From Mycoplasma sp. (GTDB lineage Bacteria > Bacillota_I > Bacilli_A > Mycoplasmatales > Metamycoplasmataceae): a stretch of 64,000 nt of DNA. Both the position numbers and the translations under genes were made by a program. The notes under the pieces are model-generated. The model did no database searches. It was not told where the DNA came from and saw only the letters and a list, made by a program, of their open reading frames with translations. This document shows positions 30,660-32,823 of this stretch, piece by piece; position 1 is the first letter of the stretch, and each line of letters begins with the position of its first letter. The stretch is from NCBI GenBank assembly GCA_014803855.1, contig JAAVAX010000001.1:3842-67841 (forward strand). The letters are read 5' to 3'.

Positions 30660-32348
30660 ATGAAAAAATATGAAAATATCAATATATTAAATTTTAATGA
30701 AAATGACATAGTTACTCTTTATGGTTGAGCTCAAAATATCCGTAAAATGGGTAATTTTAATTTTGTTGATCTAAGAGATAGAAGTGGAGTTGTTCAATTA
30801 ATTTTTAATACTAAAATTGATTTTACAAAAGAATCAGTTTTAAAAGTAACAGGTATTTTGAAAAAGAGAAAGAGCCCAAACAACAATATTGCTACTGGAC
30901 AATATGAAATTGAAGTAACAGAATATGAAATATTATCAAAGTCACAAGAGTTACCATTTGAAATTAAAGATGATATCAATGCTAAAGAAGATACAAGATT
31001 ACAATATCGTTTTTTAGATCTAAGAAGACCAAAAATGTATCAAAATTTATTGTTAAGACACAAAGTTGTAAAAATAGCAAGAGATTGATTTGATAAAAAT
31101 GGATTTTTAGAAATTGAAACACCTATACTTTCTAAATCTACACCTGAAGGAGCTAGAGATTATTTGGTGCCAACAAGAAATAATGGTAAATTTTTTGCAC
31201 TTCCACAATCTCCACAACTATATAAACAGTTGTTAATGATTTCTGGTATTGAAAAATATTTTCAACTATCAAGAGCATTTCGAGATGAGGATATGAGAAA
31301 AGATCGTCAACCAGAATTTACACAATTAGATATTGAAATGTCTTTCATTAGTGAAGAAAGTATATTTTCAATGATGGAAGATTTATATCATGAAATTATG
31401 AAAAAAACTATTGATGTAGAAATAAAAACTCCATTTGAAAAAATGAAATATGATGATGCTATTGATTTATATGGAACAGACAAACCTGATACAAGATATG
31501 AATATAAGCTGATTGAATTAACAAAGTATCTATCTAATTCTGATTCTGAATTATTCAAAAATCAAGAATCAATTAAAGGTTTAATTTTTGATAAAGAAAT
31601 ATCAAATAAAGAAATAAAAATTCTTGAAGAAATTGCTTTAAAAAATAAAACTGATAAATTAATTGCAATCAAAATAACAAATGGAGAATTTAATTCAAAT
31701 AAATTAAATGATTCAATATCTTCTAATTTAAAAAATATAATTAGTGACTTTAAAATAAAAAATGCTACTTTATTTATTACAAGAGGTAAATATAATCAAA
31801 CAACACAATCTTTAGGAGCAGTTAGAGTTAAGTTAAATGAATTATTTAATTTAGCTAATGAGAATGAATATAAATTTATTTGAATTATTGATTGACCAAT
31901 GTTTGAATATGATAATGAATTATTAGTTCCAGCTCATCATCCATTTACAGCACCAACTAATGAAACTATTCAATTTTTAGATTCAAATCCAGAAAAAGTG
32001 AAAGCTTGTTCATATGATTTAGTATTAAATGGTTTTGAATTATCTTCTGGATCAATAAGAATTCATGATAGAGATCTACAAAATAAAATGTTTAAAATTT
32101 TGAATTTATCTCAACAAGAAATTGAAGATAAATTTGGTTTCTTTTTAAATGCATTTCAATATGGGATACCACCACATGGAGGACTAGCATTTGGTATTGA
32201 TCGTTTAATAATGATTTTAGCTAAAGAAAACTCAATTAGAGATGTCATTGCTTTTCCTAAAAATGCAAATGGTATTGATGTTATGTTGGATTCACCATCT
32301 AATGTTAATGATCAACAATTAAAAGAATTAGGTATAAAAAAGATATAA
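30660..32348 (+). CDS. aspS: Aspartyl-tRNA synthetase
   Basis: 562 residues. Charges tRNA-Asp. N-terminal OB-fold anticodon domain ([15 protein letters not shown]), class II motif 1 around [20 protein letters not shown], motif 2 [23 protein letters not shown], the bacterial GAD insertion, and motif 3 [15 protein letters not shown]. An asnS gene is also present in the window, so a discriminating AspRS is likely. Start ATG at 30660 gives the complete OB fold; the first TGA Trp follows at TLYGWAQNIR. Confidence 0.97.
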
Positions 32349-32399: not shown

Positions 32400-32687
32400 T
32401 TAAAAAATAATCTTTGGAACTACTGAATCACCAGAACTTTTTAATGAATCTCATTTTAGTCTAATTTGACCATCTTTTCCTAGCTCAATTTCACCTTTTT
32501 GGACTTCATCCATTTTATTAACTATTTTGTTTTTGATAACAGTATTTGATATATCATCAGCAATATTTGCTATAGATGATAAACCAGATGTAGCAATTGG
32601 AATTATGTCACTTATACCCATTCCAGCTGAAATTGTTTTTTGCTCTTCTTGCGATACTTTATTAAAACCTTCAAATTCATTCAACAT
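32400..32687 (-). CDS. Small protein with double-glycine type leader (bacteriocin-like precursor)
   Basis: 95 residues. The ATG has TAGGAG seven bases upstream, so it is a well-supported gene. Residues 1-22 look like a leader for a C39-peptidase ABC exporter: VSQEEQKTISAG places hydrophobic V at -12, Ser at -11, Glu at -8, Ile at -4 and Ala-Gly at -2/-1, the classical positions. The mature part would be 73 residues, starting MGISDIIPIATSGLSSIA, a Gly/Ser/Ala/Ile-rich stretch, then a charged helix and KWDSLKSSGD with one TGA Trp. There is no classical signal peptide. No exporter gene is adjacent. Precursor status is inferred from the leader pattern; a plain cytosolic small protein is the alternative. 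Confidence 0.7.
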
Positions 32688-32823
32688 TCAAATTCTCCTA
32701 TATAAATTTAGATATTTTCTATATCAATTCAACAATGAGATGAAGAACAAATTATAAATTTGATAATAAATATTGATTATTTTTTTAGAAAGATTTTTAA
32801 CAATTAGAATTATATCACATTTT

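What the first reader, a model, noticed from the sequence alone, without database searches (positions are those of the whole stretch)
32400..32687. Secreted-peptide precursor candidate with a double-glycine type leader in a mollicute
The 95-residue protein has a strong ribosome site and a 22-residue N-terminus that fits the classical leader of class II bacteriocins and quorum peptides at every key position: V(-12), S(-11), E(-8), I(-4), A-G(-2/-1). The predicted mature part begins with a glycine/serine/isoleucine-rich hydrophobic stretch and contains no Cys. Such leaders are cut and exported by C39-peptidase ABC transporters. A wall-less bacterium making such a peptide would be unusual and could be a competition or signalling system; the exporter is not in the window. 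Leader positions are seen; export is inferred.
Basis: partly seen in the sequence, partly recalled or inferred. Interest (0 to 1): 0.8.

Follow-up and report, generated by a model that had tools for sequence, protein, structure and literature searches.

The report
Mollicutes' missing double-glycine export peptide
This small gene encodes the precursor of a secreted peptide, and relatives of it occur as one copy per genome in most wall-less bacteria examined that keep a particular cut-and-export pump whose natural cargo was reported as unknown, so it is the best candidate for that missing cargo.

Summary
The 95-aa ORF (32687-32400, minus) is a real double-glycine-type precursor. The genome does contain the C39-peptidase ABC exporter: 678 aa, NCBIfam NF045998 "Mbov_0121 family", catalytic Cys/His and ATPase motifs intact, with its small membrane partner NF045999. 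A leader profile trained without the window's own subfamily ranks this ORF first of 9,188 start codons in the genome (21.3 bits; next ORF 10.3). Homologues occur, usually one per genome, in 131 of 135 genomes of its family and 51 of 60 of the Spiroplasma/Mesoplasma-type family. A third family has peptides of the unexplained NCBIfam family MPN313 that share only the leader. The peptide tracks the exporter (49/50 exporter-positive versus 2/10 exporter-negative genomes in one family), and several lineages have lost or broken both. Published work stated that mycoplasmal C39 exporters, including the minimal cell's, have no known double-glycine substrate. The "bacteriocin" part is weak: single-copy, lineage-wide, no adjacent immunity gene, strictly conserved mature tail (GE...KW). 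A core secreted, probably membrane-associated peptide fits better. No wet-lab data.

The parts
32400..32687 (-). Double-glycine-type precursor peptide gene, 95 aa (TGA = Trp at codon 79)
   Evidence: homologues
32622..32687 (-). Predicted 22-residue leader MLNEFEGFNKVSQEEQKTISAG, cut after AG
   Evidence: Top-ranked leader in the genome with a profile trained outside the window's subfamily; ISAG invariant in the close congeneric homologues
32403..32621 (-). Predicted mature peptide, 73 aa, no Cys, net charge about -1; hydrophobic Gly/Ser/Ile segment, then a polar tail
   Evidence: single-sequence AlphaFold model (low confidence) gives helix 33-63 and two short strands 67-69, 75-77
32445..32498 (-). 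Conserved tail motif KGEIELGKDGQIRLKWDS (family pattern GE...KW)
   Evidence: E, K, W invariant in 36 aligned members; GE...KW in 40/40
32695..32699 (-). Ribosome-binding site AGGAG, 7 bases before the ATG
   Evidence: Sequence read directly

Best explanation
The gene encodes the precursor, probably the only one in this genome, of a peptide that the cell's single C39-peptidase ABC exporter (Mbov_0121 family, elsewhere in the genome) binds by its leader, cuts after Ala-Gly at residue 22, and exports. The product is a 73-residue peptide with a hydrophobic, Gly/Ser-rich N-terminal segment and a polar conserved tail, probably lodged in or on the outer face of the membrane, perhaps helped by the small single-pass protein (MAG1140 family) encoded next to the exporter. 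It is a member of a Mycoplasmatales-wide precursor family that is the natural cargo of this exporter. Shown: exporter and peptide in one genome, leader conservation, matching distribution, parallel decay. Inferred: cleavage, export, membrane location. Not known: what the mature peptide does; I think a constitutive core role (envelope or cell-cell function) more likely than a variable bacteriocin.
For: Exporter: G000 contig C6, 678 aa, NF045998 511.7 bits (cut-off 500), with NF045999 partner at 39.2 bits (cut-off 35); Asp-Cys-Gly and the HYVIV His of the C39 domain, Walker A and LSSGQ present; aligns over its full length with PCAT1 (4ry2, E 3.8e-34) and ComA (8hf4, E 1.8e-30). Only one C39 match in the genome and one strong leader ORF. 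Family in 131/135 genomes of the window's family and 51/60 of family f6, homologous by profile-profile comparison, E 2.7e-13. In family f3, MPN313-type peptides share only the leader region: hhalign with A5, 21 columns, E 1e-8. Exporter-peptide association in f6: 49/50 versus 2/10, Fisher p 1.5e-7, not corrected for relatedness. Decay in parallel: G347 no C39 and GG changed to GV; G225 C39 in two fragments and GG lost; G283 exporter with an in-frame TAA and peptide frame-split; G567 exporter pseudogene and peptide remnant with a TAA. Ten f11 genomes: no C39, no leader match.
Against: No expression, cleavage or export data. The gene is not next to the exporter. Position -7 is not hydrophobic as in classical leaders. 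G086 has a C39 domain but no peptide found; G570 has a pseudogene exporter but an intact-looking peptide; G523 keeps a short peptide with exporter remnants; G525 has an in-frame stop in the exporter and an intact peptide. In some Mesoplasma/Williamsoniiplasma-type genomes the exporter lacks Walker A yet the peptide is kept, so ATP-driven export cannot be assumed there. The association test ignores phylogeny.
Confidence: 0.85

Rival explanations
1. It is a class II bacteriocin (or one half of a two-peptide bacteriocin) used against competing bacteria, exported by the same transporter.
For: Double-glycine-type leader, Gly-rich hydrophobic mature N-terminus; a few family members weakly match PF10439 (5 of 36, best E 0.00088) and TIGR03949/TIGR01847; a class IIb bacteriocin was proposed in Ca. 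M. girerdii (PMC10557491).
Against: Usually single copy and lineage-wide, no adjacent immunity-like gene, tail motif strictly conserved, net charge about -1, no Pfam/NCBIfam match for the window protein itself.
Confidence: 0.25
2. It is a signalling peptide (pheromone) sensed by neighbouring cells of the same species.
For: Leader type is shared with ComC-like pheromones; the exporter aligns with ComA, the competence pheromone exporter.
Against: The mature peptide is large (56-126 aa across the family) compared with pheromones; no receptor or histidine kinase gene lies beside it; mollicutes are generally held to lack two-component systems (own knowledge, not tested).
Confidence: 0.12
3. The peptide is a cytoplasmic or membrane protein unrelated to the exporter, and the leader resemblance is coincidental.
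For: Gene not linked to the exporter; no experimental data; -7 atypical.
Against: Best leader in the genome by a profile from outside its subfamily; the leader is the only part shared with MPN313-type peptides; co-distribution and parallel decay with the exporter.
Confidence: 0.07

Closest known systems
Double-glycine (class II type) leader precursors with C39 PCAT exporters (ComC/ComA, PCAT1 system, class II bacteriocins)
   Same: Leader with hydrophobic -15, -12, -4 and small -2/-1; C39-ABC exporter in the genome
   Different: -7 mostly Lys/Gln instead of Leu/Met; exporter gene unlinked; long mature part with an invariant tail motif; lineage-wide, usually single copy
NCBIfam NF045747, MPN313 family protein (function not stated)
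   Same: Same kind of leader (hhalign E 1e-8 over the leader); one member lies in a 580,076-base genome inferred to be Mycoplasma genitalium
   Different: Mature part does not align: no GE...KW tail, instead a Ser/Asn-rich tail, often ending in an SPxPxRS-type stretch
NCBIfam NF045998 Mbov_0121 family peptidase domain-containing ABC transporter, with NF045999 MAG1140 family
   Same: The window genome's exporter and partner meet both cut-offs
   Different: This is the machine, not the cargo; its cargo was not named in the models or in the papers found
JCVI-syn3A gene 0401 (C39 exporter, PMC6609329)
   Same: Same type of orphan exporter in a mollicute
   Different: The authors found no double-glycine substrate and proposed lipoyl-peptide import instead; I could not test the M. 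mycoides genome here

Membership tests
Double-glycine leader precursor | Short N-terminal leader ending in GG/GA/AG with hydrophobic -4 and -12 | tested here: met
   I(-4), V(-12), AG(-2/-1); profile from outside the subfamily scores 21.3 bits, rank 1 of 9,188 starts
Double-glycine leader precursor | Hydrophobic residue at -7 (classical ELxxI pattern; common but not universal) | tested here: not met
   Q(-7) here; Lys/Gln commonest across 112 family leaders. The family is therefore filed as a variant of the classical leader, not as a typical member
Double-glycine leader precursor | Cognate C39-peptidase ABC exporter in the genome | tested here: met
   One C39 match; exporter at 511.7 bits to NF045998, catalytic and ATPase motifs present
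Double-glycine leader precursor | Cleavage after the small-residue pair and export | not testable with these tools
   Needs biochemistry or mass spectrometry
Class II bacteriocin | Antimicrobial activity | not testable with these tools
   No assay
Class II bacteriocin | Linked immunity gene | tested here: not met
   Neighbours on both sides are aminoacyl-tRNA synthetase genes with no small ORF of that kind between (annotation by eye)
Class II bacteriocin | Match to bacteriocin family models | tested here: not met
   Window protein: no Pfam/NCBIfam family; a few relatives weakly match PF10439
MPN313 family (NF045747) | Score above the 100-bit cut-off | tested here: not met
   Window protein not matched; only the leader aligns between the profiles

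The most novel reading that the evidence does not exclude
A core, vertically inherited secreted peptide of Mycoplasmatales: one dedicated cargo per genome for the Mbov_0121-type C39 exporter, performing a conserved envelope or cell-cell function, with the leader kept while the mature part was replaced at least once (MPN313 branch).
Probability: 0.6. Interest if true: 0.88.

Novelty: new variant of a known kind. Interest (0 to 1): 0.8.

Why it matters
C39 exporters are present in most mollicutes, yet the minimal-cell metabolic model states that no double-glycine substrate had been found for syn3A gene 0401 or, citing Dirix 2004, for other mycoplasmas, and assigned a different function for that reason (PMC6609329). 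A conserved precursor family that tracks the exporter reopens that assignment and gives a directly testable substrate in organisms with very small genomes. Conserved, probably extracellular peptides of wall-less bacteria would also bear on how these cells interact with each other and with hosts.

Tried and rejected
Genome-contig scan with the window protein: no relative. A second scan with four relatives named only Williamsoniiplasma lucivorax; this corrected my guess that that genus (g33) was the M. mycoides group, which therefore stays untested. Weak matches (E 0.01-1, long frames or no leader) were set aside, including the G011 match, a lipoprotein-like ORF. Peptide genes next to the exporter: none in 30 exporter loci. 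FliL match in PDB (E 0.01) judged chance. Outside the order, the only match at E <= 0.001 was a frame with two TAA stops. Single-sequence AlphaFold gave mean pLDDT 56.4, so no fold search was run. PADLOC: nothing.

Full report
What is there. Read with TGA as Trp, the minus-strand ORF 32687-32400 encodes 95 residues, MLNEFEGFNKVSQEEQKTISAG|MGISDIIPIATSGLSSIANIADDISNTVIKNKIVNKMDEVQKGEIELGKDGQIRLKWDSLKSSGDSVVPKIIF, with AGGAG 7 bases upstream of the ATG. It lies between an aspartyl-type tRNA synthetase gene (30660-32348, plus) and an asparaginyl-type one (34167-32824, minus) (names from reading the sequences). No sigma-70-like promoter stands out above chance and no terminator was found.

The exporter. 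A C39 peptidase is there: one match, over Pfam's cut-off. The gene encodes 678 aa and scores 511.7 bits to NCBIfam NF045998, Mbov_0121 family peptidase domain-containing ABC transporter (cut-off 500); the next gene meets NF045999, MAG1140 family (39.2, cut-off 35). Catalytic Cys and His, Walker A and the LSSGQ signature are present. It aligns end to end with solved C39 exporters PCAT1 and ComA. So the stated refutation, no C39 peptidase, is not met.

Is the leader more than chance? I collected family members from other genomes, trained a 15-position leader profile without the window's own four-member subfamily, and scored all 9,188 candidate starts of the genome. This ORF is first at 21.3 bits; the next ORF scores 10.3. 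An earlier pattern scan gave the same single convincing candidate with a good ribosome site. The genome therefore appears to have one exporter and one precursor. Family leaders keep -15 (M/F/I/L), -12 (L/M/I/V), -4 (mostly I/V/L), -2 (G/A) and -1 (G), but -7 is mostly Lys/Gln, unlike the classical ELxxI leader. That may be why earlier motif screens missed them (inference).

How far it goes. Three congeneric genomes carry close homologues: GF, ISAG and KGExExxKxGxxRLKWDS are conserved, with indels just after the cut site. Other congeners carry a shorter form of the family ending the leader in YGG. A profile search widened this step by step. With the final profiles, 131 of 135 genomes of the window's family and 51 of 60 of family f6 have a match, usually one each. 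The two profiles are homologous over 65 columns, including the tail (hhalign E 2.7e-13). In family f3, peptides of NCBIfam MPN313 have the same kind of leader (35 of 95 genomes at E <= 1e-3), and the profile comparison with the window's family aligns just the 21 leader columns (E 1e-8): same leader, different mature part. That is what a shared export signal predicts. By exact genome length and published coordinates, members include genomes I infer to be Mycoplasma genitalium (580,076 bases; peptide next to mraZ; C39 match at 493,130-493,516, where PMC5745988 places MG_390), M. hominis (665,445) and M. bovis PG45 (1,003,404); the reference lengths are from memory. The Williamsoniiplasma lucivorax record is named by the tool.

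Link to the exporter. C39 domains occur in 282 of 320 order genomes. In f6, 49 of 50 C39-positive genomes have the peptide and 2 of 10 C39-negative ones do (Fisher p 1.5e-7; relatedness not corrected). Decay runs in parallel: G347 has no C39 and its leader ends GV; G225 has C39 in two fragments and its leader lost GG; G283 has a stop in the exporter and a frame-split peptide; G567 has an exporter pseudogene and a stopped peptide remnant; G520 has an exporter pseudogene and no peptide. Exceptions: G086, G570, G523, G525. The ten f11 genomes have neither.

What it does. The mature part of family members has a hydrophobic segment (mean best 19-residue hydropathy 1.99 in the window's family, 1.23 in this peptide) and a tail with GE...KW in 40 of 40. 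A low-confidence single-sequence model gives a long helix and two short strands in the tail. This, single copy, lineage-wide presence and lack of an immunity gene argue for a core secreted or membrane-associated peptide over a variable bacteriocin, but no function is shown.

Known or new. PMC6609329 says no double-glycine candidate was identified for syn3A 0401 and cites Dirix 2004 for other mycoplasmas. Full-text searches found no paper describing these peptides; subscription papers are mostly not in the library. The parts (leader, C39 exporter) are known; a lineage-wide cargo family with this tail is not described in what I could search. The M. mycoides/syn3A genome itself was not tested.

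Noticed in passing
L291, L292 (exporter loci of G063 and G443): C39 exporters of about 600 aa in which no Walker A, signature or Walker B motif was found, yet the genomes keep the double-glycine peptide.
   Followed up: partly
L002 6960-9834 and L289, L290, L300: Exporter, a small single-pass protein of about 125-132 aa, and a YbeY-like gene follow each other in distant mollicutes.
   Followed up: partly
L137 2765-3053 (minus): Two different double-glycine-leader ORFs side by side downstream of a greA-like gene in G460; possible second cargo in some Spiroplasma-type genomes.
   Followed up: no
L133-L136: In Spiroplasma-type genomes (g26) the peptide gene sits after a greA-like gene and an rRNA-methyltransferase-like gene and before an rplU-like gene in the four loci read.
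   Followed up: partly
G622 contig C56 5993-6444: Two MPN313-type frames in tandem in one genome.
   Followed up: no
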